Positions 3,001-64,000 of a DNA stretch of 64,000 bases are shown one piece after another. Position 1 is the first letter of the stretch, and each line of letters starts with the position of its first letter. The DNA is taken from the NCBI GenBank assembly GCA_036785705.1, contig JAWUZG010000007.1:434001-498000 (forward strand). The letters are read 5' to 3'. The stretch is from Acanthornis magna (lineage: Eukaryota > Chordata > Aves > Passeriformes > Acanthizidae). The notes below the pieces were generated by a model. The model saw only the letters and a program-made list of their open reading frames with translations. It did no database searches and was not told the DNA's origin. Made by a program: the position numbers and the translations under genes.

Positions 3001-4046
3001 TCTTCGCACAACAGAGCAATTTATTTAGGTAGCTGAGAAAAAAACTACCGTGCTATTTGACCTTCAAGCTCGTAAAAAATAAATGATCAGGCAGAAAAGA
3101 AAATCTCGTATTTTTTAATGGGAAGCGAAAAATAAAGGTAAACTAAATAAAAAGACAAGCTGGTTAATAGGGTCTACCTGTGCGTTCTTCAGCATCTTCC
3201 CACAAGGCCTGCAAGGAACATATTAATGCCATGACCACAGAGAGGCAATATTGGCCTATCACTTCTGCTGCAGTGATTAAGCATGTCAACAGTGCACAGA
3301 CAATGCTGAATGTGGAACAGGATGTTCACAGTTATTTCTGTTAAAAAATCTGAGTTACAAAAGAAAACACTGAAATCCAGCTGCAAACTTGTTTATCACA
3401 AAAAGACAGTAATTCACTGTGTGTATGGTGAGACCAGGACTCTGGAACATCTGAAAGCTGATGAGCCCTTTTCAAGGATGCTGCTACAAATAATGCCATT
3501 GAAAAGCTGCAGTAAAGCCTCTTTCCAAAGCACGGTCACTGCTTTCTAAAATCTGAGGTCAGGCCAGACCCATAAGGGACCTATTGGCTGTTGAGCACAC
3601 AGCATAAATCACTTTAATGTGAACAAGAGTTACAGGCACCCTGATGACTGTGCTATCATTCAAGCACTCTGATACTTTGTGAAGCCAATTACAGAAGTGA
3701 GTCTTTCAAGCCCTCCTTTGCACAGACCTTCCCATTCACACAAGTGAACGTGTAAATAAGGGCTTGTGACAGAAGGAAAACATTTGCCGCACCTGTACAA
3801 ATTTCTTCTCTTCCCTTTCACTCCACCAGCTATTTGAAAAGCAGAAAGCCATGCTCCTACAGGTACAGTGTTTCTTCTGTAATGATCTTTTGGAAATATG
3901 TATCACATTTAGGAGCCATCAGCAAGAGAGATTTTTCATTCAGAATAATTAGTTGTGTAATTGGCTTTTTAAAAATGACAAGCAATTGGCTGTCATACAC
4001 GTCTGGCTTTCAAGACTTACACTCCTAAAAGTTATTTCTTTTTTCT

Positions 4047-4081
<35 letters not shown>

Positions 4082-7000
4082 TTGGTTTGGGTTTGCATTA
4101 CAAATTGAGATTTTACATACTCATAACATTAATTACAACTGGTATTTATTAAAATATAATTTTTTCATTAAAACACCATTTAGAAGGGGTTAGTGACTGA
4201 ATTATTGCTCATTTCATGCTCACTAGATTATTTTCTCCATTTTTGGTTCAAATTCCTCTGTGAATATGGAAGGACCTAAATTCCTATTACGATAAATGAG
4301 GGAAAGCATCAGTTTTTATTTCTTATCTTTCTTATCTGCTAACATAAGTCTCACTGTAGTTTGCATCTTGAGAGGCAAACGCTTATGTGGTAAAGTCTTT
4401 ACAATCAGTTTGAATATGGAATCTATTTTCTATCTTATTTTAGAGTAAACTTGATAGTTAAACTTGAGATCCAGTCTTGAGATTCAAGCCTCTTCTTCCA
4501 CTCAGAATGGAACAATGTCTACCACTATTCAGCGCCTCTTATTGATAAAAAGATAAACAATAAAATACGTTTTTCATTATTGAAAGTCATAGAAAAGCTA
4601 CTGAAATTTCTGCTATCTTTGGGCTTAAATTCTTATGAAGTTCAAATGGATTTATTTATCTTCATCTGCTAGTAAGCCTGACCTAGAAACAAACAAATTT
4701 TTATCTTGCATTTTCCCTGCCTTTCCCAACTGCCATTGTAGCTTTGCCCACTGTCATTTCTGGCATGTGCAGCTGTAAAAAATATAAATACATCCCTTTA
4801 AACTAAAAACATTGGTGACAGTCCCATAAAAAGAGATATTTGGCCTGATATTTCAACTTCCTAAGAAATGTTTTATTCTGAATCTTCACGTTCCTTTTAT
4901 TTTAAGAAACAGAACTCAACCTTTCACCTTTGCTCTTTTCACTCTTTAAAAAAATCTGATGTTAACTAAATTCATTCTAAAATCATGTAGAATTGTGAAG
5001 AAAACACAGGAAAAGGCAATTTACTAATGCAAGCAATCATCCCAGCAATTACATAGTAAAAATATGATGATTAAAAATACAAAATTCTTCCTTACAGAGA
5101 CAGAGATTTGAATTCCGAGTGGCAGAAATTTTCATGTGACAAAATAACTTTGGCTAAGCAGACACCTGTTCCTTCCAGTAAAATGCTTTTTTCACCTTGT
5201 GACAGTTCAAAACTGAATTGTAGCATGTTGAATGACAAGCCCACTTTGCCTCATTTTTCAAACCAGCACTATTGTTTTACTGGTTAGTTTGCATTTTGTT
5301 TTCAGGAAGATGGTCTGCTTTTTATCTTCTTTAAAAATGGCATTTTGATGGGGAAAGTGTCAGACTATTGAATACAAAATGCATGTGCTATCCCTAAGGG
5401 AAAAACAACTAAACAGGTCAAAAAATGTCTGAAGAAAAAAAACCACTTAAATTGATGAACCTCTCATAAATTTAAATGTCAGGAAAAATTCACAACATTA
5501 GTTCAAATATCCACGATTCTAAAAAGACAGCTCATAGTGAAAAATTACCTACCTTTCTTGTGAAGGATTCTCTATAGTTCTGAGGTCTATACCAAACATT
5601 TTTGTCACCAGAGGTTTTCAAAATTATTAGAAATTTTTAATTTCTGGTATTAAATTGTGATTTCTGATGTTCTTTTCTCTCTAACAACAGAATTCACCAG
5701 AAGATGTCACACCATGATGTGACACCATGTGTCACAGGAATGAGTCTGCATTTGACACTGGCATTTGTTTGTATCCAGAATCTGCTGCAGCGTTTTTCCA
5801 GTGGCTTTGCAGACTGAGGTAATTCTTTCAGTAGCTCAAGAAGGACATCATTTGGGATATAAAATACTTTCTGATGCAGCCCAGGATGATTTTACTCAGT
5901 GTGATGAATTCCACAATGACAGGCCTTTGCTTCCTCTTACTTAACCTTTATGACATGCCTCAAAATGTCTCATGCTTTTTGGGAGCCTGCATTTTTGTGA
6001 AGAAATGTCTTATCTCAAAGCTTAGCACGTTTTCTGAACACACTGTCATCTTAGTGCGTGTCTAAAGCATTTTATTTAGATTAAAGCAAGAAACAGTTGA
6101 AGAGATAGGTAATTGGACATGTTTCATTCTGAATCAATAAATATTTGATTTCAATCTTACTTAAGGAATAGTTCAGTTTATAAGTTTCAGATTTAATTTA
6201 TCCCAAACTGCTTCTGTTTCTGAAAATAAAGGTGGAAAACCCCTCAAACATTGCATCATACACCTTGTTTGAGGTCAATTATTATCAGTACAAGTTACTC
6301 TAACATCATATTTTTAATGTGACTATGTTGCCAACCTAAACTCTGTAATTTTCTCACAGAAAATATTTAGACAGGAACATTACAATGTATACTTTCTGTA
6401 TCTATTTTTTTTCCCAGCAACTCATTTGCTAGAACAGTCACAGAAACTGAACAAACGATGCACAGTCATATCCTAAATAGATTTTATTTTCTATTCACAT
6501 GAATATTCATAAGGGAAATGTAAAGAGTTTGGACAACCTTAATTGATTTTCCTTCTGGTAGTTCAATATTCTTTTCCTGGTACTGGCAGAAATCAGAAAA
6601 CCAAAAAGTATCACGCAAAGGTCAAAAGAAAAAAAAATTAAAAAAGGAGCAACCCAAAATCTCTTCCACCTTTAAATACAGGGTTTTTTACATGGGCTAT
6701 GCAAACACTCACTGTATGGGAAAATCGAGTTGTGCAGGATGAGAAGAAAGAGAAGAGTAAACAGAAAAGACTGTGATAAGAAGAGTTTGCGTACAATGAA
6801 TTTTTTTCAAAAAGAACATGCATAAACCCAATTTTATTTTTCCTTCTACTACTTACACTTTTTGCTTAGTGTGAGAACTTCTAAGAGATGAACATAAAGC
6901 AGTTCATGCCAAGGCATTTTAGTCAGATTCCAAAACTTTTACTCAGAGCCCCTAATTTAGCATTGCTTATGGTCCTCATAAATAAAAACTTATGGCTGTA

Positions 7001-17439: not shown

Positions 17440-19625
17440 TATTTATTTCTCATCCAGAGTCTGAGGTCCTCATTTGAGGACTGGGTGTGTTACCCTTGAG
17501 GCAACTGAGGTTGCTCTTAATAAATCCCTTTGGGTAACTAGAGTGAAACGGCACTGAATGAGTGGTGTATTGGAGGTCTCCGGACCTCCCTTACTCTGCT
17601 AGCATCAGTCCATGGTTTGGTGGTTGGATTGGTGGCACTGGGAATTCCCAGTTGTCGCTCAGAGCTAAGTCCTGGGTTGTTGCGGTGGCTGAAACCATCT
17701 CGGAGAAGCTGAGAGATTCCCAGACTGGTCACACACTGCTGGGACAACTCTGAGGCAGGAAACACCCCCTGAGTGTTTATTGGATGGTCTGTCACTAGAT
17801 ATGTTAATCCTCCTATGTTGATTGGTTGCTGTTGTATCACTGACTCCTCCCTTCCCTTCTTCCCATTGGTTGTTGTATCACTTCCTCTGCCCCTCCCTTC
17901 TTCCCATTGGTTGTTGTTTTATCTCCCCTCCTTCTCCCCAACCCTATTGGCCCTAGACCTCTATATGAATGGCCACTCACAGCCATTTTTCCTCTTTTGC
18001 TGTTTGACCCCTTTGAGAATAAACCTTCTCAGAACTCCACGCGACTGAGCTCTCTGGTTCTTTGTCCCTGGTAACGCACGAGCCATCAAAGCTCTGGGGT
18101 GTGTGTGTGTGACTGTGCCGTCCACCAGCACGGGTGAGAGAAAGGGTCTGCTTGCACGGTGTCGAATGCACCGGCTGAGTGTCTCTGAGCAATAGAGACA
18201 CTTTTGGAACATGCAGAGGACCTATGCCACCCCACCACCGTCCCGTGTTACTGGGCTACTTGCAGGTGAGTCAATGCACGTGCAGTCTGGTTCTGGGATC
18301 TGGGAACTGATTTTATTCACTCTTGTAAGCGTTTGGTGTGAATTTTCAGTGTGTCAGGCAAAGCCTGATTAAAAGTGGAAATCCAAGATGATCAGCTTCC
18401 ATTTCCATAGGAGGGCTACCTTGAGCCTTCCACAGCTGTGTATGCATTAACTGGAAACATGCCACCTTCTGCATACTCTACAATGCATGACCAACTGTGG
18501 GGCTTTCAGGTGCATGGCATTCTCTCCACTCCATAGGATCCAAGCCTCCTGACCAGTATGCTGCCCTCTGGGTTAGGATCATGGCCCTTAGTTATCACCC
18601 ATGGTCAGCAAGACTCCTGGTCCCCAATATCCCCTTGCTTCTGTTTCACTCAACAAGATCCAGTCTCCCCCAGTAAGAGATACCCTCTAAACATATTTGG
18701 TTTCTGTCTCATTTCTAAGGTACTGCTCCTGTATTTGAGCAAGGGCTTCACCTCTGTAAGGGGCTGTGTGTGTTGTAGTTTGCTGAGCTCCACCCTGAAC
18801 ATATCTAAAGTTTCAGTTTTAATGAGGGGGCACAGTTTTACTTCATCATCGTTCCCCAAGTAATATACTTGGTATTTCTCCAATTTCTCAAGAGGGTATG
18901 GGGACTTGACATTTGAAATCATCCAAGATTTCCCTGTATCATTAGTACATGACTGCCATTCTCTAGTTTCTGGTTCCCTCCTGAGGGTTTCCTCTCCTTC
19001 CAATGACTTTTGTAGGGCTGACAAGAGTAACTTACTCATTTCCTTTTCTCTTCTTGTTGCCATTTGTTCTGCAGCAACCTGGGAGATCTCTCTCCCCAAT
19101 TGTTCTTGCAAAGATTTTACCAAATCTTGCATAGATTGCATAGTTTTACTCTCTTTGTTTTGAGCAGCTAATCATTCTTCCTGCACAGCTACCAGAGATG
19201 CACCCAGAATGGCACAGACAGCTGCCTTTCCTTTTAGAGGTTTTTATTTATTTGTCTCTTAGAATGGCATTTTGACCAGACACAACTTTTGAGTCATGCC
19301 AATTATGTGCCCAAATCCTAGCCAGGAGGATAAGTTTTATAGTTTTCTAATCTTATTAATAAGGGACTGTCCCCATTTGGATTGCCCTGGGTGATCATGT
19401 TTTTAAATTCAGTCATTTTTGCTCTCTGAGAGCTAATGTCCTTCTCTGCGCTTTCCTCTGAGGACAGGTGAAGTTTCCTCTGGGAGGAAGATCTTGTAAA
19501 AGTCTGGGCACTGTTGGTTAGTTGACCAAAGGATCCTGTCCATGATGTCAGTGAAATGTTGAAACCTGCCTCTGAGGCAAAGATAAAGTTTAACTGCACG
19601 GCCCAAGTAGTTTAGGAAAAGGTAC
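17440..19625 (-). pseudogene. Decayed endogenous retrovirus gag-like fragment, split by a solo LTR
   Basis: On the minus strand a 163-codon open segment (18,650-19,141) contains a glutamine/glutamate-rich helix followed by LEKYQVYYLGNDDEVKL. A second segment (19,318-19,599) ends in RLENYKTYPPG. Both resemble the N-terminal gag region of bird endogenous retroviruses. The frames are interrupted by stops and shifts, no pol or env follows, and no flanking LTR pair is attached. A solo LTR at 17,678-18,250 interrupts it. I recognise the family by look only. It is a dead remnant with no complete gene. Confidence 0.5.
17678..18250 (+). mobile_element. Solo LTR, type B, ERVK-like, 6-bp target duplication
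   Basis: It begins TGTTGCGG and ends GTGTTA. It is flanked by CTGGGT (17,672-17,677) and CTGGGC (18,251-18,256), a 6-bp target duplication with one mismatch, the size usual for ERVK/class II elements. Inside are repeated CCAAT-type blocks (CCCATTGGTTGTTGT), a TATA-like TATATGAA near 17,962 and an AATAAA signal at 18,018. A second copy in reverse orientation lies at 26,678-27,260 and fixes the ends. It sits inside the older minus-strand gag fragment. Confidence 0.85.
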
Positions 19626-26320: not shown

Positions 26321-26677
26321 CTTCCCGGGCTGTGTTCCCTGTCCGCCCCTGTCCTGCACTGCTTTGCCGTTTCCCCGAGGCAGCTCCGTGGCCGCCACAG
26401 CCTCGTGCTCTGCTGTTTCCCCGGCGGAGCAGCCGCCGCTGCCGCTGCCAAGAGCCGCGCCCCGAGCCTGCCAGCCGCAGCTGCTCCCCGAGTGTGCCCG
26501 TGGCCGCGGCAGGCTGTTCTTCACCCACGGCAGGGACACGCAGCTGCTGCTGGTGGCAAATGGCGCCCAACCCACCAAGGGAACGACGCAGACTCCTCAC
26601 AGCTCGCAGCGCACACGCTCCCTCTGCCAAACTCCCACCGATGGGCGCCCAGGCTACAGCAGTAATGATCTGTCTGG

Positions 26678-27260
26678 TAACCCAGGGTGGTGGTGGGGTG
26701 AGATATATCCTCTGCGTGTTCCGAAAGTGTCCTGATCGCCCAGACAGACACTCCTGGCCAGTGCATTCCACACCGTGCAAGGAAGACCTTCTCTCTCAGC
26801 CATGCTGGTGGATGGCACAATCACATACACACACCCAGAGCCTTTGATTAGCTCAATGCATTTACCTGAGACAAAGAACTCAGAGGGCCCAGGTGCGTGG
26901 AGTTCTGAAGGCGTTTCCTTTCGAAGGGGTCCAGCAGCAAAAGAGAGAGAAAGGCTGTGAGTCGCTATGGATATAGGGGTCCAGGACCAATAGGGTTGGG
27001 GAGAAGGCAGGGAAATACAATGACAACCAATGGGAAGAAGGGAGGAGTGGAGTAAATGATACACTGAGAACCAATGGGGAGAAGGGGAGGGCGGAGTCAG
27101 GGATACAACAATAACCAATCAACATAGGAGGATTAGCATAACTAGGAAGAGACCACCCAACCAACCTCAGAGGTTATTTCATACCTCAGGGTTGACTCAC
27201 CAGCATGCTGCTGCTTTTTGACCTCTCGGCTCCTCCGAGAAGGTTTCAGATACCACAACA
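26678..27260 (-). mobile_element. Solo LTR, type B, nested, ERVK-like, 6-bp target duplication
   Basis: Reverse-oriented relative of the LTR at 17,678-18,250, with the same CCAAT-type blocks (CCAATGGG on the + strand), the same TATA area and the same TGTTG...GGGTTA ends. It is flanked by perfect GTCTGG copies (26,672-26,677 and 27,261-27,266), and the related type A element at 63.5 kb has the uninterrupted site. The poly-A motif seen in the other copy is mutated here. Confidence 0.87.
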
Positions 27261-49552: not shown

Positions 49553-50230
49553 ACAAGAAGGGAGCAACAGAAGTGGCAGCAGGAGGAGAGGCTGCAGCAG
49601 GAGAAGCAGTGGGCAGCTCAGCTCTGGTGGCAGAGCCAGGACATGGCCCTGGCCCAGCAGCATCCCAAGTGTCCCAGGAGGAGGACAAGCAGCTCTAGCA
49701 TACGTTTCATCAAAGTGGGATTCATTCCAATGGGACCTACAGGTACTGCCTCTAGAACATTCGACAAGCCTGTACAGCGTAGATCCTCACCTCTGCTAAT
49801 GAGTTCTTTGGAGAAAGTCAGCCCAGCCAAGGCTGGCAAAGCCTTGCTTGCCTTGGTCACTCAGTATCCTTGGGTTAGCACTTTGCTGGAGGAGCAGAAT
49901 TCGGTGCTGCAGAAGTGCTTGTTGGAGTGAGGGAAGCTGACAGCTCAGTGAATTCCACAGCCAAGAGTAGTTGATGGAGGAATGTCTGAAACACAAGATG
50001 GAGCAATCGCAAAAAATGGACTTCATCACGATGAGACTGGCCAAGGTACCAGAGCAGAGCTCCTTCCTGTAGCCTCCAGCACCACTTGGGATGCTCCAAG
50101 GATGGGTCCTGCCCACAGGGGAGACATTCAGTGCTGCCTCCAGGTGTAAAGCCAGAGATATCACGCAGAGTGGGGAGAACCAGGCTGCTCCAAGCACAGC
50201 CTCCACCAATGTGTCTTAGATGTACCACAC
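49553..50230 (+). pseudogene. Truncated FBF1-like paralog (copy A), coiled-coil exons
   Basis: This matches the downstream gene in two blocks. Bases 49,553-49,860 match 57,985-58,252 plus 58,751-58,790 (exon QQEERLQQEK... and its 3' intron). Bases 49,880-50,225 match 59,860-60,180 (exon and intron). About 1 kb carrying two exons of the other copy is missing between them. Frame damage includes a 2-base insertion near 49,665, a 5-base deletion near 49,940 that yields TGA, and a CAG-to-TAG change near 49,965. It still keeps the ancestral reading of the second exon's 3' half (MEQSQKMDFITMRLAK) up to AAG|GTACCA. It cannot make the protein. Confidence 0.85.
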
Positions 50231-51519: not shown

Positions 51520-52400
51520 TATATTCTAATCCTGCTCTGGGGGGAATGGAGCTCACAGGTTGGGGCTGTAGCACCAGGGGCAGCAAAGGAGCAAGAGCAG
51601 AAGCAAGGACAGATGGCTCCTCACAGCTTGTCTCAAGTCCATAGATAACATCCTTAGCTGGCTGGGGTTGTCCCTCTCCTGCATGGGAGAAGCCAGCTCT
51701 GCTAGATTGTGGCTTCATGATGTCCCCATCCTCTCCGATCAGCCCTGCTTCCCTGATGTGCCCTTGCGAAAGAAATAAGAGAGTGTTTACAAACAAACTG
51801 CTGATAAGGTAAGGCCCATACTGAGAGACAGAAGAAACAAGGGGAAGGATTTCCATAGGAATTCCACTGATTGACTCCCCCAAGACTGTGTTAACAAATT
51901 ACAGGAACAGAGACATAAGAAAAAGAAGAAAGAGGGGTTCATATTGAGGGTGTCTGCATTAGGGGTGATGTGTATTACTTGTGTCTGCATTAAGCGTTCC
52001 AGGAAGTCTGTACCTCTCGAGTACCTCAGCCAGTGCGGAAAACAGAGAGGGAACCTGTGGCCAGAAAATTAGGATAAAAAGAGGCTGCATGCTCTAGCAA
52101 TTCGAGAAACCCCATGAGAAATGGCCATGACCTCTCCCTTTATTCATGAATAAAGTTACAGGACTCTTCTGTCTCCTTTTTGGACTTAAACTTCTGGCGT
52201 TTGTGGATTACTTTTTCCTGACACTTGCACAGGCAGGGATGCTCTTGGCGGCTTCATCTGTGGGTCCCACTCAGAGTGTGAGGTCACGGGCTTTAGGGGC
52301 CCCCATGCACCCCAAAGGGTACCACGGATGAGTGCCAGCCCAGAGCTCTCTGAAGCCCATCCTTCCCTGAAGGACAGCTTGGGACACTTCCCTCTGGGAC
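51520..52400 (+). pseudogene. Copy A, last-intron remnant of the FBF1-like paralog
   Basis: Bases 51,520-51,753 and about 52,245-52,395 match consecutively to 62,560-62,900, the last intron of the intact gene. Shared strings include ATGGCTCCTCACAG, AACATCCTTAGCTGGCTGGG, GATGTCCCCATCCTCTCC and GGTACCAC(A/G)GATGAGTGCC. The match is interrupted by an LTR at 51,754 and stops before the final exon, right where the CpG-rich block begins. Confidence 0.8.
51754..52240 (+). mobile_element. Solo LTR, type E, inserted in copy A, upstream of the FBF1-like promoter
   Basis: The paralogous stretch near 62,775 is continuous, so about 480 bases beginning TGATGTGCCC are an insertion here. It carries a TATA-like GGATAAAAAG near 52,072 and an AATAAA signal at 52,149 in the + orientation, the order of a sense LTR. 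The right edge is approximate (between 52,223 and 52,245) because the flank is diverged, and I could not assign a target duplication. Confidence 0.7.
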
Positions 52401-54179: not shown

Positions 54180-54780
54180 AAGGAAGACGGTCACGACAAA
54201 AAAAACTTGTCTTTGGAGAGTACGAGCCCTGTTGGTCCGATGACCAGCTGACAAAGTGGCAGCTTGAAAGGTATTGTGCGCTTTGTGTGTCTGTAACTCC
54301 AGCTGCCAGCCCTGCTGCCCCTGCAGTGGGGAGAACAGGGTCCCCTTGCGTGCAGTGTCCCCTTGCAGGTGGGTATGTGACTGCTTCTCCTTGCAGAAGA
54401 TGTGGATCTCAGAACAGTGACAAACTGAAAGCAGACCCTTGGTCCAAACCTCCTCCTTCAGCAAGGCACCGCTTTGCGAGTGAGACCAGGAGGACTAAGG
54501 ATGACTGGCTGACACTGGAAGATGAGGAGCTTCTGGATTTGGAGCAATTGTTTCCAACAAAGTCCAGCCCTGCTGCAGACAAGAAGCACATCCCTGTGAG
54601 CCAACTCCCAGCCAAAGAGGAGGCAGCAGCTAAAGCTGACCCACTGAAGGAGGAGGAGGAGGACTGGCTGAGTGCTGCCTTGGCTCGCAAAAAAGCTCAG
54701 GCGCAGACAGAAGTTCAGGAGAGAAAGGTCCAGCCTTTGGAGGCCCCAGGCAAAGGGCTGGATCCCTATTCTCCTGTCAG
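54180..54780 (+). CDS. FBF1: FBF1-like exons with FGEYEP and paired DWL motifs
   Basis: The exon 54,180-54,270 reads RRSRQKKLVFGEYEPCWSDD and ends AG|GTATTG. The exon 54,397-54,780 follows TTGCAG, completing the split codon to Arg, and ends TCAG|GTAAAG. It contains KDDWLTLEDEELLDLEQLF and EEEEDWLSAALARKKAQAQ, short acidic-hydrophobic repeats typical of the disordered N-terminal half of FBF1, followed by a Lys/Glu-rich region. This is the longest exon (127 full codons) and the strongest evidence for coding in this half. Confidence 0.85.
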
Positions 54781-57700
54781 GTAAAGGCATGGTCAATGGC
54801 TCTAGGTCTCCCATCTGCTCCACTCGTAGCTGCTCCAGGACGACTCCTCAGAAATCTTCGGTTTAGATACAGGAAATTAATTATAAGCCCTGTTCTCTTT
54901 CAGGCTGGGGTTGTAATGAAGGGCTTTCTGCCACTGTCCCATCACAGCTCTGAGCTCTCCTACTATTTGCACATGTGGTTCTGGATCCTATGGATCTGGT
55001 CTGGATCAGCACACTCTCACAAGCTTCCCCATCCTCCTTGTTCCTGCCTCCATTCCCCTTCATTCAGTCGAGTTGCAGACAAAGCACCACCTGTGGTTGA
55101 ATTCACATGGACACAGGTTCAGGCTTGTGCCATCCAAATGGGACTCGGCAGTGAATTTCGGACAAAGTGCTGTGTGTGTCGTGGGCAAAGGTGCATTAGC
55201 TGGGGCTGCTGCTGCCCAGGGGCAGGAGATTGATACAGCAACAAGGAATACCAGTGATGGAGGTTTTGAGGTGTCTGTGCTCCCTCTGAAGCAAAAAAGC
55301 TGAATCCTGCCTCAGCCAAGGGGGCAGGCTGTCAGCTGTCAGGCAGGAGTGGGTTTTGGGGGCAAGGGTCTCGTCTTTCATCCCCTCCTTCACTCTTTCC
55401 CATTGGATGCTTTTCACTTGAAGCCAGACAGCTGCCTTCACAGGAGCACCACAGCAGGCAGCTGTCCCAAAAGACAAGGCAGCAAGCACCAATGGCTCAA
55501 GGTAAGGCCACCCTCACCTTGCAGGCATCTCCCAAGGGAGAGGTGTCCTGCAGAAAGCAGCTACATATGTGAGGAGATGGGGAACGGGGAGGGTAGGTGG
55601 CTTCCAGTGATCCCTTTGGAATGGAACCTCTTTAAGTGAAAGGGAAGGCAACTCTGAGGTACCATCAGGCTCTTGTCTATTTGATCCCAGGGGGAGAGTC
55701 AAGATGTAAATGGAAAGAAATGCCAACTAAGTGAATGCCTCTGCACCTCTCCCTGAGCTGTGATGCTGCTGAGCATCTCTCATGTCTCTGTGCCCATGCA
55801 GGCAGCCGGACCCTCAGTTCAGCACTGCGAAAGAATCCTCAGAAAAAACACTGCTACCTGCAAAGACAGATCGCTTCCAAGAGACAAGACCCCCAGGTGC
55901 GTGTCATGTGATTGTACAGTTTGGGCAGCCAGGGAGGGTCCCCTTGCACTGCAGAAAGAACCCAACAAAAGGCAGGAGCCACAGCATCTCCCTTGACCAT
56001 GGGAATGCTGTCCAGGCTGTGATCAGCCATCCTTGGAGAAAGCTTCCTAGCTGCAGGATCACACCATTCCCATTTTGTGGTGTGGTGGGGATATGGTGCT
56101 GGGGTGCACTGAGCTCAGGAGGGGTCCATCAGGATAGAGATTACCCTTTGGAGACACTAAGTCCGGATGTCCATGGCCATCATCCCAATCGCTTCCTGTC
56201 TGGTTTCCAGATGATCCTGTTAAACCTGCCAGAGCTTCCCAGCCAGCTGCAAGCAGCACTTTGAGAGGCCAGTGCCCCTGCTCACAGGCCGGCAAGAAGT
56301 GAGTGTCTTTCAGACATGGCATCTCTCTCCTGGGGATCTCTCTGTGCTCCCTAAGTTCTTCTCACCTGCCTTTCCTTGGCTTCTCCCCCTCACTCCCTGC
56401 CACAACAGCACTTGTCTAGGAAGGCAGGTAACCTGCGATGTCTTTGGGAATTTGGGTCCCAGGGCCTGAAGCTTTCCAAGCAAGAGCTGGGTGCCCCTGA
56501 GCTCTGTACATCTTCTGTGAATATCCCTTGTAAAAACAGGTGCTTGCTAACTAGAGCAATCCCACACTGCTATCTTTTATCCCAGGGCTATTTTCTCTTC
56601 ATTTTTCTGTGTTGTATGATGTGGCTTCTGTGCTATGCCTGTCTAGTCCCCTCCACCTCCCTCTGTCTGGTCTGGCCGCCCCAAGGTATCCTTGCTTAGC
56701 TCATGTGTGGTGCTGCTAACCCCTGGACTTATGTCACAGGTCTGTCCCAAAGAATGACTTCTTCAGCAAACTCTTTGAGGAGGGCATTGAATTTGTAGAG
56801 GTGAGGCCGAATTTCAGGAGACAGCCTGAGTGTCTCAAGGGCTGGGGCTGAGGTAGACCAAGGTTTCTCCTGGTCTCACATCATTCAACTCAGCATTGCT
56901 GACCAGGGATGAGCTGTGAAGTTGTTTCTAGACAACTGAAGGGGAATTAGAGCTTTAACAGCAATGGCAGCTTTTGCTTGGTCTTGGAAATTTCCATTTC
57001 TCATCCAGTTGGGTCTCCTTGCCCTGCCCTGGTGGCAGGATGCACTGTCTCCCAGAGCACTCCAGAGCCTTCCCCTCGAGCCTGGCCCTTGAGAAGACAG
57101 ACCAGCGGGCTTATGCCTGGGATAGGGGTTGCTCCTGGGGAGAAGGGATCCAGATGAGCCGTGGGGTTGGGCAGGAGAAGGGTGGAGAGGAGGCTGCAGT
57201 AGGCTGAGTGTTTCAGGGTGAGGAGGAAATGTGCTTTACCTCCCTGAAATCATTCCTGCATCCCCTCAGTTTGCCACAGCTGAGGCGCATCTCCAGAATT
57301 CAAAAGGATGTTTGGCATCACTGCTCCAACTCCAGACCCTTGTGTCACAGCTGGATAGACAGGTGAGCCCATTGCCTGCTGGCTGGGGAACCATGGGTGA
57401 CCAAGTAAGAGGAGAAGGGACCATTTCTGCTCAAAAAGGTTTCAGGGTGACAGGGCAGATTGAAGAAACCTTGCTGTCCAGAGATGCCTATGCCCCCTAA
57501 GTGCTGCTTTAGGACCTCTGTCCCTAGGGTGGCACAAGGACCTCCTCTGTGTGTTTGTGGCAGGTCCAGACAATGGAAGTGCAGCAGACAAAGCAAGAAC
57601 AGTTATTGGATTTGCTCCAGCGGCGGCACCAGGAGGACCTGGGCCTCATCACAGATGGCCACAGGTGGCAGCCTCTGGCCTGTGCTCCCCTCCTCTGTCA

Positions 57701-60700
57701 GGTCCTTGCCTACAGCCCTGTCCATCTCCCCTGGGGTGAGAACGCTGGGGCACTTCCCAGTGCATCCCTGAAAGGGAGCACAGAGCCACATCAGTGTGAG
57801 CCTGGTGGCTGCAGAGAGCAGCCCCACGGGTCAGCCAAGGTGGGGGCTTACTTTACCAACACAGCAGTAGGTGACAAGAAGGAGGGGCCAATCCCACTGC
57901 CAGCATGTCCCCAGTGTGCTGGGTATGGCCAAGAAAGCAACACTTTTTCCTTGCTGTCACCTCTTGGGCAGGAGCCAGAAGGATGTGGTGGAGAACGAAG
58001 ACAGGCAGCAGCAGGAGAGGCTCGAGCCAGAGAAGGAACAACTGACAGCTCAGTTCCCATTGGAGAGCCAGGACACAGCCCCAGCACAGCAGAATCCCAA
58101 GTCCCAGGAGCAGGACAAACTGCCCAAGGGTATGTTTTGTTGAAGTAGGCTTCATTCCAATGAGACCTAAAGGTAAAACCTCTGGAACATTGGAAAAGTA
58201 CAGTGTAGACCATACCTCTCCTAATGACTTCACTGAAGAAAGTCAGTCCAGGTGTTAACCAAAATTGGTAGAATAAACTTAACACCAATTTTGCATTAAG
58301 AAGCAGGCATTCTTTATTCAGCGCTGGATGTGATTGGGATATTTCTACCTTTCATGCATATCGAGTAAGAAAAACTCCTGTTTATTTACTATATTTTACT
58401 CATATATTCATTGGTTTTCCCAGAAGAAACTTACATTTGATAATAATTTCCACAAATCCAATAATGTATTTTCCTTCCCATTAGTGCATGTCCTCCTATC
58501 TTAGGGGTCCCTTGGGTGGTCTTTTATGGTCACCAACCCCAAAGCTGTAGCTGACTGCTCGATGAACTCGATGTTACTTCCCAAATGCAGAGATGAGTTG
58601 GTATAACTAGTCCGGTTCTTTGTTTTTGAGACACTTGGTCAACTGAGTGTACTTTCTTGTTCCTTCTCCTGGTTATGTTTAACATGATTTTTGAGAATAA
58701 GCACTGTATTTTCCATAAGTTAAGCAAATAGTTCTTCATCTGGTGACACAGTCGAGGCTGGCAAAGCCTTACTTGCCTTGGTCACTCAGCATCTCAGGGT
58801 CTACCCTTTACAAAATACAGTCCTGGGGATGTGCAGAGGACAAGAAAAAGCAGTTTTGCCATGAATATTGTGTGGATGTAGTGAGGGTATCTCAGCTCCT
58901 GCTTCTTATGGTCCTGCTGCTGCCTCTTCCCAGAGCTCCAGAACACGCCATCACAGCAGCAGAGGGACATGGAGGAGGAACGGAGGCAGTTCCAGGAGAC
59001 GATTGGTAAACTGGAGGCCAAGCTGACGGAGCAGACTCAGCTGCTGGAGCAGGTGAGTCCAGCCTGTGTCTGCTGCCAAGGTCAGCCCTCCCGTGTGGGT
59101 ATGGGGCATGTCTTGCTCCCTGGAGGTCCCTGGCCTGGGGCCTGGGAGTGGCACATGCCTCTCGTCTGTGTCCAAACCCAGGAGCGCTGGAAGGCAATGG
59201 TAGAAAAAGACAGAGCAGAATTGCTGCAGCGCTCACTGGAGGAGCAGCAAAAATTCATGATGCAGCAGCTCTCCACAGCACGAGAAGAGATGGAGAAGGC
59301 GAAGGTGAGGCCAGGCAAACACCTCCGAGTGTTTTTCCCATGTGCCATCAGTCTGTGCAGCGCTGCACTGCAGTGTGGGGTGGAGGACAGCTCTGGGGGC
59401 TGGGCTGCAGCCTCCTTCACCTGCCCTCAACCTTCCTGCAATTTCAGGTAGGAGCTGCAGTCACAGGTAGGAGCTGCAATCATAGGTAGGACAAGAGGGA
59501 ATTCTTGAGGCTCGGCACCCTGGTGGTGAAGGAGACCATGGGAATACTCGTTCTTCCAAACTGTTTCCCACAATGAGTCTATCTTCTTCCTGTCACACCT
59601 GGCTGCATGGGGAATCGTGCTCTGATCAACCCTCCAGCATGCAAATGCCAGAGGCTGCTGTGTGCCTGCGCTGTGCCTGCTGACTTTTGAGAACAGAGCC
59701 AGAGACCTCCTTGCAAAATTCTGGCCAAACACCATGGGCTGGAATCAGCCTTTCAATGTTGTGTGTAGTTTAGGGGCCGCAGTGGGTTAAAGGGGGTGTG
59801 GCAGATGTGACTTTAGGGCTACATCTCTCCCTGTCTTGCCATGGTCTCCAGAAAGCTTGGCTGGAGGAGAAGATTTTGTTGCTGCAGAAGTGCTCAGAAG
59901 AGCAAGGGAAGCTGACAGCTCAGTGGGCTGTATTCCACAACCAAGAGCAGCTGGTGAGTGTCTGGAGCACAACATGGCACAATCGCAGAAAAGGGACTTC
60001 ACCATGATGAGACTGGCCAAGGTACCAGAGCAGAGCTCCTTCCTGTAGCCTCCTCACCTGGGGGTTCCAAGGATGGATCCTGCCCACAGGGGAGACATTC
60101 AGTGCTGCCTCCAGGTGTAAAGTCAGAGATATCTACACTCAGGGTGGTGAGAACCAGGCTGTTCCAGGCACTGCACCTATCAGCATGTCTGGACATCAAC
60201 AAAAGCATCAGTCGCCTCTGACTCTCTCCTGTGCCTGTGAGGAGTTTGGCAGTCAGAGCAGAAGCGGCTGTCTCCATTTTAAGTCAGCCGAGAGGAAATG
60301 TCCCTGTTCCATGGGGATGTGTCCACAGTCACTTCTGCTTCTGCCTCGGGCTGCCAGAGGGAATATGTGATACAGACAGTGCAGCAGAACTCCTTTTTTA
60401 AGGGCTACTGAGGTGAAGAATAACCATTCAGGATGAGTCTTTCCACTTCTGACAAACTGCTGAGCCTTGAGCACACCTTACATTGTCCTAATGTAGCGAT
60501 GATTTTTGCCTTTTTTTCTTTAACATATGTGTAGCCTTCACAGTACTTTTCCCTACCCTTTTCCCCAGCTAGGAAGACCCAACACATTCCAGACCTCCAA
60601 GCCCCAGGGGGAACAAGGCCCCTATCCTATCTTGGTTCTTCCTGGGAACCAGGGTTGAGAACAAGGTCTTCAAGACACAGTTTCATAAACAAATACAGCT

Positions 60701-63064
60701 TGTTTATGAAAAGGGTGGGGGGCTCTAGAGAAGGGCCTTGACCTGGGGGGAATTGCATCACCATTTGTCCTCCTAACTGGTGCTTTTTATCAACTATGCT
60801 AATTTCCTAAAACCTGTAAAACTGTATTCACCCCTGTGGGGGTGGGCTTTTGTGGCTATTCTTCCAGAACTGCCCCTGAAGATACAATAAAGATCCACTT
60901 TTCTATTACCTCCTCTACTAAAATTAACCTGAGTTTCATTTCCAGATTGAAAAAGGCTTCAATCCAACATGATGAGGGGGTTCCATCCTTTCTGGGGAAA
61001 GGGTGTGGGTGTGTCTGTACAATCCCAGTTCTGCCAGCCCTGGCCCCCAAAGGTGAATGACTGAGGGCACTGCTCAAGTATTTGGTGGTGTTTCTTTGCA
61101 CCCCAAACTGGCCTGCAGAAGTTCAGCAAGAGCAGATTTCCCTCATCTACTTAGGAAGTCACGAGACGGTGTCCAGAACAGGACAGGTAAGGCTTTGGTT
61201 TCCCCTGTGCCCATCCTAGGAGCAGTCAGACCTCAAGTTACAGGGCCAGAATCTGAGAGCCAAGGAGGAGCAGCTGGAAAGGGACAAGGACCAGCTGGAG
61301 CGGAACAAGAAGCAGGTGGAGAGGGACAAGGAGCAGCTGGAAAAGTCCTGGCAGGAGCTTTACCTGAAGAAGGAGAAGGTGAAGAGGGCCAAACAACACA
61401 TCCAGCACAGGGAGAGGGAGCTCAAACGCATGGCTGAGGTAAGCATAGCATCTGTGCTGCAATTCACAGCTGTACAGAAGCCGGGAGCAAGGCTGGGGCT
61501 TCACATTCCTCATGAAGACATGAATCCTAATCCTGAGCTGGGAATAAGGATATGTGCAAACTGGGCAGTGACGGTCTCTGTTCCCAGTCTCCCCAGCTGC
61601 TCTGCCTTGCAGCACTCATGCCAGAAGTATAAGGAAGGGGAGCGAGCCTTGTGGGAGGTGCACTGGATAGAGTTCGAACATCAGGAGAGGCTCAGGGCTG
61701 TGCAGAGACAGATGGAGCAGCTGAGGCAGCACCAAGAGCTTCTGCACCAGGCAAGTACCCCCTCACTTTCCATTCTCAGCCTGCAGCCCGTGTGCCAAGG
61801 GCCTGAACCCTTGCCAACAGCTTCTCTTTCTCCTGGGGGTGGGGCAGGATCGGCTGAGCATGGCTCAGCAGAGGAGGCAGCTTGAACAACTGCGCAATGA
61901 GCTCTCACGCAATAACCAGAAGATGCTGCCGAGTGAAGACCAGGGTTTATGTGCTCCTGTGGATGGTGTCTCCTGCCCACAGTGTAAGACTTCTCATGTG
62001 CTGCTGATGGGAAGGGATGTATGGGAGGGAGATGTATTCTCCTTTTCAAGAGAGATGTTTCCTGGGGGCTGTTTTAGGTCACCTATGTAAAAAGCTAGCT
62101 GTGAGTTTGCCTCCTCACCTTGTACAGGAGCTCGTCTAAGCTCTCTGAGCCAGGCCAGTGCTCTGAGGGTGTAGGAACGGAGAAGTTGATGGGTTAAAGC
62201 CCATTTGCACTGGAAGTTTGGGGAGGGCTCTGCTGCCCATACACATGGGCAACAAAAAAAAGGGGTTGCTCTGTTGTCTCCATCTGCGACCCCTCCAACA
62301 GCAATGGCATCACCCAGTCAGGTGTCTTTTGCAGGCGGGATGTGCCCTCAGCACAGTCTGTGGGGAAGCAGGGACAACACAGCCAGCTCCACTGCACTCA
62401 CTGCTATGCTGCAGATGCTGAAACACAAAGCCCAGACGGTGAGGTGGTGGGATGCAGGGGCTGGAATGCACTTGGAAACAGCTGGTGGGAGCAGGGCTGG
62501 GTGAGGTGTGACTTGAGCCTGATACACACAGGCTGGGGTGTTTCCTAAAGTCATTCTGGAGCTGCTGGGATGGGCAGGCTTACAGAATCTGTGAGCAGTT
62601 AGAGGAGTGATAAGAGAAGCAAGTAGAGATGGCTCCTCACAGTTTGCATTGCATTCATGAGTAACATCCTTAGCTGGCTGGGGCTGTCCCTCTCCCACCC
62701 CATCCCTGGGTAGGAGAAGTCAGCTCTGCCTGATTCTGGCTTTGTGATGTCCCCATCCTCTCCTATCAGTCCCTGCTTCCTTGCTGACATCTGTGGGTCC
62801 CAGTCACAGCATGAGGTTATGGGCTTCAGGGAGGCCATCATGCACCCCACAGGGTACCACAGATGAGTGCCAGCCCACTGCTCCCTGCATGAGGGACCGT
62901 TTGGGACACTTCCCTCAGTCATGAGCACCATCCTGGCCAGTGTCCCTGTTTGTGTCATTCTCTCATACCCAAACCTTCCATCCCTCTCTTCTCAGGACCA
63001 TGATTTCTTGGAAAATGAGCGCATCTTCCTGGATTCCCTGAAGAAAGTGCCCCACCATCCATGA
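54180..63064 (+). CDS. FBF1: Fas-binding factor 1-like (FBF1/Albatross), multi-exon gene
   Basis: FBF1 is a centriole distal-appendage (transition-fibre) protein needed for ciliary gating, also reported at epithelial junctions with keratin and as a Fas partner. Exons read here: 54180-54270, 54397-54780, 55068-55150, 55444-55501, 55802-55896, 56211-56298, 56740-56800, 57270-57362, 57564-57664, 57972-58129, 58934-59052, 59182-59304, 59852-59953, 61220-61438, 61613-61750, 61848-61983, 62335-62438, 62996-63064. All phases agree and no in-frame stop occurs, giving about 739 residues to a TGA at 63,062. The N-terminal half has two DWL-type motifs, the C-terminal half is coiled coil, and the tail reads DHDFLENERIFLDSLKK as in FBF1. 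It is shorter than mammalian FBF1 (about 1,130 residues), with the N-terminus and part of the coil missing or unseen. One exon depends on a new splice donor and one intron is GC-AG. The duplicated upstream fragment suggests a multicopy locus, so it may be an FBF1 paralog rather than the ortholog, or a decaying copy. Confidence 0.85.
55068..56800 (+). CDS. FBF1: FBF1-like linker exons (five short exons)
   Basis: The exons at 55,444 (APQQAAVPKDKAASTNGS), 55,802 (QPDPQFSTAKESSEKTLLPA...), 56,211 (DPVKPARASQPAASS...) and 56,740 (NDFFSKLFEEGIEFVE) join in phase with consensus acceptors and donors. They encode a low-complexity Pro/Ser/Ala/Lys linker. The first, 55,068-55,150, is the weakest. It has a good pyrimidine-rich acceptor (ATTCAG) and the length needed to keep phase, but its donor (GCA|GTGAAT) is only moderate, and a longer open reading continues to 55,190. 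Confidence 0.65.
57270..58129 (+). CDS. FBF1: FBF1-like exons starting the coiled coil
   Basis: The exon 57,270-57,362 (SLLQLQTLVSQLDRQ) and the exon 57,564-57,664 (QTKQEQLLDLLQRRHQEDLG) form a leucine-heptad helix; the HQEDLGLI..HR segment is recognisable from FBF1. The exon 57,972-58,129 (DRQQQERLEPEKEQLTAQ...) follows in phase (AG|G gives Arg). The donor after 57,664 (CACAG|GTGGCA) is weak. In mammalian FBF1 more coiled-coil exons lie between these segments; I do not see them here. The last exon has a broken counterpart in copy A. Confidence 0.8.
58253..58750 (-). mobile_element. Solo LTR, type F, in an FBF1-like intron
   Basis: It runs TGTTAACC...GGTGACACA on the + strand. On the minus strand a CATAAAAGAC TATA-like site (near 58,520) precedes an AATAAA signal (complement near 58,312), so it lies antisense to the gene. 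The paralogous copy A is continuous at the same place (49,810-49,835), proving insertion after or outside the duplicated copy. The flanks show GTCCAGG and GTCGAGG, but the empty-site comparison does not make this an exact duplication. Confidence 0.8.
58934..59304 (+). CDS. FBF1: FBF1-like coiled-coil exons (two)
   Basis: The exon 58,934-59,052 reads QQQRDMEEERRQFQETIGKL and on to LTEQTQLLEQ. The exon 59,182-59,304 reads AELLQRSLEEQQKFMMQQLS and on. Both are charged leucine-heptad helices of the FBF1 C-terminal half, joined at phase 0 with GTGAGT and GTGAGG donors. The corresponding DNA is missing from copy A. Confidence 0.88.
59446..59490. repeat. 19-bp tandem repeat in intron
   Basis: AGGTAGGAGCTGCAGTCAC and one close copy, then a partial third. 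It lies directly after a pyrimidine-rich CAG that looks like an acceptor, so each unit begins with a spurious AG|GTAGGA donor-like string. Confidence 0.85.
59852..59953 (+). CDS. FBF1: FBF1-like exon ending at a deletion-born splice donor
   Basis: The exon reads ILLLQKCSEEQGKLTAQWAV and on to NQEQL, matching the FBF1 segment after the previous helix. In copy A the same exon runs on for about 24 codons to AAG|GTACCA. Here 4 bases are missing just after the CTG (Leu) codon. That would shift the frame and stop at 60,005, but it also makes CTG|GTGAGT, a strong donor at a codon boundary. Splicing there joins in frame to the exon at 61,220 (EQSDLKLQ...). The old donor survives at 60,022. Confidence 0.75.
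60530..60957 (+). mobile_element. Probable solo LTR, type G, in an FBF1-like intron
   Basis: A stretch of different composition with a TATA-like CTTTTTATCA near 60,784, AATAAA at 60,886 and an end near GAGTTTCA (about 60,941-60,950) looks like a sense-oriented LTR. The 5' edge is uncertain and I found no target duplication. It would place a poly-A signal inside the intron in the same direction as the gene. Confidence 0.45.
61220..61983 (+). CDS. FBF1: FBF1-like C-terminal coiled coil (three exons, heptad repeat, GC-AG intron)
   Basis: The exon 61,220-61,438 contains LRAKEEQLERDKDQLERNKK and four tandem 7-residue units (61,268-61,351). The exon 61,613-61,750 reads QKYKEGERALWEVHWIEFEH and on to QRQMEQLRQHQELLHQ. 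The exon 61,848-61,983 reads LSMAQQRRQLEQLRNELSRN and on. The K(Y)xEGERAL and LSxAQQRxQL segments are the clearest FBF1 signatures. The intron after 61,750 begins GCAAGT (AG|GCAAGT), the classic GC-AG donor, since no GT keeps the frame. Confidence 0.92.
62335..63064 (+). CDS. FBF1: FBF1-like final exons with conserved tail
   Basis: The exon 62,335-62,438 begins with two bases of a split Cys codon and reads GMCPQHSLWGSRDNTASS, then LTAMLQMLKHKAQT. The last exon, 62,996-63,064, reads DHDFLENERIFLDSLKKVPH and stops at TGA. The DFLENExxFLxxLKK tail is the conserved end of FBF1. The intron between them is the segment duplicated in copy A. Confidence 0.92.
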
Positions 63065-63344: not shown

Positions 63345-64000
63345 CAGTAAAAAAGGGAGTCGGGAAGGATTCTTTTTAACAGATTACTTGGACAAAAAAA
63401 TAAAGCGCAAACAGGGCAACATTATATCTGAGAAGTCTTTATTGATAAAAAAGGGTAAGTGCTCCTACCAAAGGGCGATAGAAGAAAGAACAAAGAAGGA
63501 AAAAGAGAGATTGAGAGAGAAAGAGAACACCAGACAGATCGTTCCCGCTGTAGCCGCGGCGCCCCTTGGTGTCTGCGGGGCAGAGCAGCGTTCGTGCAGA
63601 GCTGCGCTGAGCCCGCGCGGCTCTTGGCAGCGGCTGGGCGCCATTTGCCACCAGCAGCAGCTGCGTGTCCCTGCCGTGGGTGAAGAACAGCCTGCCGCGG
63701 CCACGGGCACACTCGGGGAGCAGCTGCGGCTGGCAGGCTCGGGGCGCGGCTCTTGGCAGCGGCAGCGGCGGCTGCTCCGCCGGGGAAACAGCAGAGCACG
63801 AGGCTGTGGCGGCCACGGAGCTGCCTCGGGGAAACGGCAAAGCAGTGCAGGACAGGGGCGGACAGGGAACACAGCCCGGGAAGAAGCAGCACCGCCCGCA
63901 GGCAGAAAAAGGCGAGCGAGGGAAGGAGGGAGCGAGGGAGGGAGGGGAGCCGAGCCGAGCCTGGAGGCTGTGAAAAACGAAGTTCACTCTCCTGTTGAAA
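63345..64000 (-). mobile_element. GC-rich LTR, type A, second copy, runs off the window
   Basis: The reverse complement of the split element at 25.5-27.45 kb but uninterrupted. It has a U5-like end at 63,345, an AATAAA signal on the minus strand (complement at 63,438-63,443), a CT-rich part, then the CpG-rich part (63,545-63,960). It is convergent with the FBF1-like gene. The window ends inside it, so its 5' end and any attached ERV body are not visible. Confidence 0.75.

What the first reader, a model, noticed from the sequence alone, without database searches (positions are those of the whole stretch)
59940..60023. A 4-base deletion appears to have created its own splice-donor rescue in the FBF1-like gene
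Seen: compared with the broken copy at 49,960-50,045, the gene lacks 4 bases right after the Leu codon ending at 59,953. Reading on would stop at 60,005. The same change forms CTG|GTGAGT, stronger than the old donor AAG|GTACCA at 60,022, and it lies at phase 0, as does the next exon at 61,220. Inference: the reading frame is restored by shortening the exon by about two dozen coiled-coil residues. If real, a disabling and a compensating change arose in one mutation.
Basis: partly seen in the sequence, partly recalled or inferred. Interest (0 to 1): 0.75.

Follow-up and report, generated by a model that had tools for sequence, protein, structure and literature searches.

The report
One-base deletion makes its splice site
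In a multi-copy songbird gene related to FBF1, losing a single DNA letter scrambles the protein code but also creates a strong new splicing signal at the same spot that could skip the damage; no RNA data were available to show that it does.

Summary
The difference is real, but it is not one 4-base deletion. A sister copy on contig C141 lies between the two states: compared with copy A and other passerine proteins it has lost one codon, and the window's gene then lacks one further G. That G alone breaks the frame (stop at 60,005) and turns CTG|GTGGAG into CTG|GTGAGT at 59,953/59,954.

The surroundings fit a rescue. A 17-exon chain (54,180-63,064) stays open for 718 residues if the new donor is used; with the old donor it frameshifts. 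Manakin proteins, and Corvus in the parts it has, share its rearranged FBF1 exon order. The new donor scores well above the old one. Only 8 of 2,159 possible one-base deletions would make an equally good in-phase donor.

Against function: the gene lies in a unit of about 67 kb or more found at least seven times. All seven copies carry the deletion but vary as neutral DNA would (14 amino-acid-changing to 5 silent sites). Exon skipping would also keep the frame. No transcript evidence was available.

Verdict: anatomy confirmed in corrected form; splicing use likely if transcribed; functional rescue unproven.

The parts
54180..54270 (+). exon e1 of the FBF1-like chain (5' end and start codon not found upstream)
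   Evidence: open frame, AG/GT boundaries and phase fit; similarity to bird FBF1
54397..54780 (+). exon e2
   Evidence: tblastn to bird FBF1; phase fit
55424..55501 (+). exon e3
   Evidence: tblastn; phase fit
55802..55896 (+). exon e4
   Evidence: no tblastn match; phase fit and alignment with manakin proteins
56211..56298 (+). exon e5 (matches residues about 20-55 of canonical FBF1, out of canonical order)
   Evidence: same order in manakin proteins
56740..56800 (+). exon e6
57270..57362 (+). exon e7
57564..57664 (+). exon e8
57972..58129 (+). exon e9
58934..59052 (+). exon e10
59182..59304 (+). exon e11
59852..59953 (+). exon e12 in its predicted short form (34 codons, phase 0 at both ends)
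59954..59959 (+). new donor GTGAGT; one G fewer here than in the C141 copy (GTGGAGT), the missing base adjacent to 59,956
   Evidence: alignment with C141 and six other copies; scores
59954..60021 (+). former 3' part of e12 (23 codons in C141), now out of frame; first stop at 60,005
60022..60027 (+). old donor GTACCA, still present
61220..61438 (+). exon e13, phase 0; carries a 14-residue insertion relative to Corvus, manakins and canonical FBF1
61613..61750 (+). exon e14 (followed by a GC-AG intron)
61848..61983 (+). exon e15
62335..62438 (+). exon e16
62996..63064 (+). exon e17 with the stop codon
49575..50200 (+). copy A: decayed partial duplicate of the e9-e12 part, keeping the ancestral extra codon
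   Evidence: self-comparison, translation

Best explanation
An FBF1-like gene of the rearranged passerine form first lost one codon in exon 12. In the lineage that was then amplified to at least seven copies it lost one G (GTGGAG to GTGAG). That loss shifts the frame and, at the same place, makes a near-consensus phase-0 splice donor 68 bases upstream of the weak old one. The likely outcome in any transcript is splicing from 59,953 to 61,220. That removes 23 coiled-coil residues (against C141) and leaves a 718-residue open frame, in place of a stop at 60,005 and probable decay of the mRNA. Shown: the deletion, the donor, the phases and the open chain. Inferred: use of the donor. Not shown: transcription, protein, function.
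For: One-G difference from C141, shared by 7 of 7 window-type copies. Donor score 91.0 and U1 pairing -8.9 kcal/mol against 68.7 and -5.6 for the old donor and 62.4 and -4.6 for the C141 sequence. All 16 junctions of the 17-exon chain fit in phase; one open frame with short e12, 10 stops with full e12. Same exon order in manakin proteins, and in Corvus for the parts it has. Eight of 2,159 possible one-base deletions would do this. No other stop or frameshift in e1-e17 in 7 of 7 copies. C7 against C141: 20 amino-acid-changing, 14 silent, 0 nonsense differences against 36.1, 13.8 and 2.4 expected from the non-coding spectrum; one-sided binomial p 0.043.
Against: No RNA evidence of any kind. Among the seven deletion-bearing copies, 14 of 19 exonic variable sites change the amino acid, which is the neutral share (0.74). 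Exons are if anything more variable than non-coding sequence (19 of 2,227 against 35 of 7,073, Fisher p 0.056). The sign of constraint between C7 and C141 is weak, one-sided and absent for e1-e11 alone (12:6, p 0.37). The e12-e13 stretch fits the FBF1 profile less well in the short C7 form (34.0 bits, under the cut-off of 45) than in the full C141 form (49.8). The start codon was not found. The scoring matrix is recalled, not fetched, and its cut-off was set after the fact. With only two lineages, a +1 insertion in C141 after a 4-base loss is as parsimonious by count.
Confidence: 0.5

Rival explanations
1. The seven copies are non-functional passengers of a large amplified segment. The deletion is an ordinary first step of decay, and the donor it made is a coincidence or is used without consequence.
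For: 14 changing to 5 silent variable sites among the seven copies, the neutral ratio, and no lower variability in exons than outside. The unit is repeated as a block: samples match from window about 2,000 to about 69,000. A neighbouring relic, copy A, is already dead. A version with the full exon in frame survives on C141.
Against: No further stop or frameshift in 7 of 7 copies; only 0.37% of one-base deletions would be self-rescuing; some constraint between C7 and C141, p 0.043. The divergence is too small for any of these to be decisive.
Confidence: 0.4
2. Exon 12 is skipped altogether (e11 to e13), which keeps the frame because both its boundaries are phase 0. The new donor is irrelevant.
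For: The full exon has 171 bases in C141. Chiroxiphia lanceolata isoform X3 (P0131) and two Strix uralensis FBF1 homologue isoforms (P0003, P0004) lack exactly this exon in their annotation. Indels in symmetric exons can cause skipping (PMC6731291, abstract and passages seen).
Against: The deletion strengthens rather than weakens the exon's definition: a 102-base exon with a strong donor. Of the 11 passerine protein rows, 9 include the whole exon, 1 lacks it (P0131) and 1 is a partial record that ends inside it (P0143).
Confidence: 0.12
3. The old donor at 60,022 is still used. The product is truncated at 60,005 and the mRNA is mostly degraded, so the seven copies are knocked out.
For: The old donor is unchanged, and the relatives' proteins contain the residues it encloses.
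Against: By position score it is below all 16 donors of the model, though e5 and e15 pair slightly less well with U1; the new donor is 68 bases upstream with clearly better score and pairing.
Confidence: 0.12
4. Reverse polarity: the common ancestor had already lost all 4 bases and spliced at the new donor; C141 later gained a G and returned to the full exon.
For: Two events either way; no third, independent B-type copy to settle it (one search found only the seven and C141).
Against: It needs the gene to pass through a frameshifted state before C141 regained exactly the ancestral frame; relatives with the full exon fit the simpler order.
Confidence: 0.1

Closest known systems
Fas-binding factor 1 (FBF1, Pfam PF21007), passerine form as annotated in Corvus hawaiiensis (P0124) and manakins (P0125-P0129)
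   Same: same rearranged exon order; 72% identity to Corvus over 60% of the query, 51-54% to P0125-P0129 over 99%
   Different: 1-base deletion and predicted short exon 12 in the window-type copies; 14-residue insertion in e13; at least seven near-identical copies. The Corvus model lacks e3-e5 and differs after e15
Canonical bird FBF1 (for example Mycteria americana P0019, 1151 aa)
   Same: exon-by-exon similarity; PF21007 match of 196.5 bits for the joined C-terminal exons
   Different: exon order differs, the block matching canonical residues about 692-793 is absent, no matching N-terminal start found
Indels that still give a product through altered splicing, as described for CRISPR-edited cells (PMC6731291, abstract and passages seen)
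   Same: a frameshifting indel in a symmetric exon can still give an in-frame product
   Different: there the passages describe exon skipping by loss of enhancers; the words 'splice site' and 'cryptic' do not occur in its main text. Here the indel itself builds a donor, it is natural, and it is shared by seven copies

Membership tests
FBF1 family (PF21007) | profile match above the curated cut-off (45 bits) | tested here: met
   267-residue joined exons score 196.5 bits
FBF1 family (PF21007) | canonical order of segments from start to end | tested here: not met
   segments run about 300-527, 20-75, 589-691, 794-end of the reference; the order is shared with manakin proteins, so it looks like a lineage form and not an assembly fault
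FBF1 family (PF21007) | complete coding frame with a start codon | tested here: inconclusive
   open from e1 to the stop in e17 with short e12; no start found upstream
FBF1 family (PF21007) | role at ciliary transition fibres (recalled) | not testable with these tools
   needs protein localisation
Self-rescuing frameshift (indel that creates its own donor) | one mutation both breaks the frame and creates the donor | tested here: met
   one G between C141 and 7 of 7 window-type copies
Self-rescuing frameshift (indel that creates its own donor) | new donor is in phase and stronger than the old one | tested here: met
Self-rescuing frameshift (indel that creates its own donor) | new donor is used in mRNA | not testable with these tools
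   no transcript data on hand
Self-rescuing frameshift (indel that creates its own donor) | rescued product kept by selection | tested here: inconclusive
   20:14 changing to silent between C7 and C141 (one-sided p 0.043) but 14:5 among the seven copies, the neutral ratio

The most novel reading that the evidence does not exclude
A single-base deletion knocked out and rescued the gene in one step, and the rescued, shortened FBF1 form was then amplified to at least seven expressed copies, so that a self-rescued allele became the majority form in this genome.
Probability: 0.2. Interest if true: 0.6.

Novelty: new member of a known kind. Interest (0 to 1): 0.4.

Why it matters
If the donor is used, this is a clean natural case, with both states in one genome, of a frameshift that carries its own remedy. 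Simple annotation would call seven gene copies dead (stop at 60,005) when they may be open. The in-genome pair C7 and C141 makes the claim directly testable by RNA reads. If the copies prove silent, it is a caution against reading a rescue into a pretty splice site.

Tried and rejected
Rejected: the 4-base deletion as one event (C141 shows 3 + 1). Rejected: insertion in copy A (relatives keep the codon). Rejected: simple assembly error in the G run, because 7 of 7 places on 6 contigs agree. Superseded: a first count of changing and silent differences (19:14, binomial p 0.0046) that ignored the substitution pattern; one search replaces it with p 0.043. Considered and left open: linkage of the copies to Z, W or a germline-restricted chromosome. 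In 4 of 7 passerine species among the closest hits the protein lies on a contig of 72.6-79.8 Mb, which suggests Z, but that is inference; the other three lie on short contigs.

Literature: no paper in the library held FBF1 with passerine, with songbird or with germline-restricted chromosome, nor fas-binding factor 1 with birds and W chromosome. Four searches for frame-restoring splice changes gave three off-topic listings and none. One search listed one FBF1 paper, not opened. One search found 48 papers, 5 listed; only PMC6731291 was opened, as passages.

PDB sequences held no relative (2 hits up to E 1, best E 0.7). Rfam: no match at the gathering threshold. Two other ORFs in the window had no Pfam match. 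Whether a canonical FBF1 exists elsewhere in this genome is unresolved: the PF21007 search gave 26 exon matches, 24 in the eight known copies and 2 below the cut-off on C618; the search with a stork FBF1 did not complete.

Dropped rows and limits: four of the seven copies were joined from two fetched pieces with one base missing between them; that base was set to N and ignored (one such N falls in e10 of C11b). Of 20 amino-acid differences between C7 and C141, 7 are derived in C7, 7 in C141 and 6 could not be polarised. Homologue statements use only the 120 rows listed out of 1,086 and 302. The tblastn survey used 59 of the 123 proteins then held.

Full report
What was checked. The finding says that the FBF1-like gene lacks 4 bases after 59,953 compared with a broken copy at 49,960-50,045, and that this makes a splice donor that saves the frame. 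The sequence was read and compared with the rest of the genome. The window lies on contig C7 (434,001-498,000) of a 1.48-Gb assembly. The stretch 59,840-60,080 occurs seven times at 100% identity (C7, C80, C717, C303, C722 and twice on C11) and once at 97% (C141). Each of the eight has an A-type exon-12 match about 10 kb away. These counts are lower bounds by the tool's own statement.

The four bases are two events. The C141 copy is the key. Copy A reads TTGATGGAGGAATGT, C141 reads CTGGTGGAGTGT, and the window and six other copies read CTGGTGAGTGT. One codon is missing from both B types. One further G is missing from the window type only, in 7 of 7 copies. In C141 the exon is 171 bases, in frame, and ends at the old donor AAG|GTACCA. 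The proteins of Corvus (QLMEECLEHKMEQSQKMDFTMMRLAK) and of manakins and a flycatcher (KLREEW...) keep the codon: 9 of 9 passerine rows that contain the whole exon. So the longer state is ancestral and the losses happened in the B lineage. The direction of the single G rests on parsimony and frame.

The gene around it. With 16 junctions chosen on AG/GT (one GC) boundaries, 17 exons from 54,180 to 63,064 join in phase into one open frame of 718 residues, if exon 12 ends at 59,953. With the old donor the window copy frameshifts (10 stops in the remaining frame), while C141 stays open at 741 residues. The order of segments differs from canonical bird FBF1, but the manakin proteins have the same order, so the chain is unlikely to be an artefact of joining. 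Corvus agrees in the parts it has, though its annotated protein lacks e3-e5 and differs after e15. The joined C-terminal exons match Pfam FBF1 at 196.5 bits, cut-off 45. The e12-e13 stretch alone scores 34.0 bits in the short C7 form and 49.8 in the full C141 form. No start codon was found upstream.

The donor. By a position table (recalled from the literature) the new donor scores 91.0, the old one 68.7 and the C141 sequence 62.4. U1 pairing energies are -8.9, -5.6 and -4.6 kcal/mol. On the + strand between 52,000 and 63,990 only nine sites reach 91, and seven of them are donors of the model. Deleting each base of e1-e16 of C141 in turn gives 8 of 2,159 deletions that create an equally strong donor in the right phase; 12 of 2,159 do at a cut-off of 75; 3 of 8,636 one-base insertions do at 91. 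Two of the eight are this very event. The cut-off was chosen after seeing the site, and the finding was picked because it is striking, so the 0.4% is a guide and not a p-value.

Signs of function. Between C7 and C141, 20 amino-acid-changing, 14 silent and 0 nonsense differences stand against 36.1, 13.8 and 2.4 expected from the non-coding substitution pattern (one-sided binomial p 0.043; for e13-e17 alone 5:7, p 0.011; for e1-e11 12:6, p 0.37; uncorrected for several tests). That is mild evidence of constraint somewhere on the two branches. Among the seven deletion-bearing copies the picture is different: 19 exonic variable sites, 14 changing and 5 silent, the neutral share, with exons no less variable than the rest (19 of 2,227 against 35 of 7,073). 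None of the seven has a second stop or frameshift in e1-e17, but so few changes have accumulated that this says little. The reading 'kept by selection after the deletion' is therefore not supported, nor excluded.

Other ways out. Exon 12 is symmetric, so skipping it also keeps the frame. An annotated isoform of Chiroxiphia lanceolata (P0131) lacks exactly this exon, and FBF1 homologue isoforms of Strix uralensis (P0003, P0004) lack it too; in Bubo scandiacus (P0002) the matching stretch is read out of frame. These are annotations; their RNA support was not seen. The exon seems easily lost in birds. This makes a shortened product plausible and the specific rescue less necessary.

Setting. The six other young copies are 99.49-99.98% identical to C7 over 14 kb. 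Five of the six were sampled near the left edge of the window and match at 99.3-99.8% (window about 2,000-5,100). All six match past its right edge as far as was fetched, to window position about 69,000. So a unit of about 67 kb or more is repeated, judged from samples and not from its whole length; two copies lie 873 kb apart on C11. The C141 relationship begins near window 25,965, runs at 97.3-97.7% through the window and on to about 68,000.

Verdict. The corrected event, one base that breaks a frame and makes a donor, is cleaner than the one proposed. Use of the donor is the most likely outcome if the copies are transcribed. Function of the product is open and the copy-to-copy variation speaks mildly against it.

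Noticed in passing
49,575-50,200 and 51,599-52,394: Decayed pieces of a second FBF1-like copy (e9/e12 region and the last intron), upstream of the gene and in the same order; its exon-12 part is present beside all eight copies.
   Followed up: partly
61,220-61,438: Exon 13 carries 14 extra residues in a stretch of a 21-base repeat (ERDKEQL-like units), absent from Corvus, manakin and canonical FBF1.
   Followed up: partly
61,750/61,751: The intron after exon 14 starts with GC (CAG|GCAAGT) in both C7 and C141.
   Followed up: no
55,423/55,424: The acceptor of exon 3 reads AAG in the window copy and CAG in C141.
   Followed up: no
61,186/61,187: A strong unused donor-like site (CAG|GTAAGG, score 95.4) inside intron 12, 33 bases before the next acceptor.
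   Followed up: no
59,436-59,491: Short tandem repeat in intron 11 that repeats CAGGTAGGAG, a donor-like motif.
   Followed up: no
window about 2,000 to about 69,000; contigs C7, C11 (two), C80, C303, C717, C722: At least seven near-identical copies of a unit of about 67 kb or more, judged from samples; chromosome not identified.
   Followed up: partly
26,321-26,678 and 63,529-63,883; 17,678-18,251 and 26,677-27,260: Inverted repeats (90% and 79% alike) inside the window.
   Followed up: no
protein hits P0002, P0003, P0004 (owls): Owl FBF1 homologues on contigs of 89-103 Mb lack or misread the same exon in their annotation, apparently an independent loss.
   Followed up: partly
G000:C618:101798-103522: Two weak, sub-threshold FBF1-profile matches in long open frames; probably another coiled-coil gene.
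   Followed up: no
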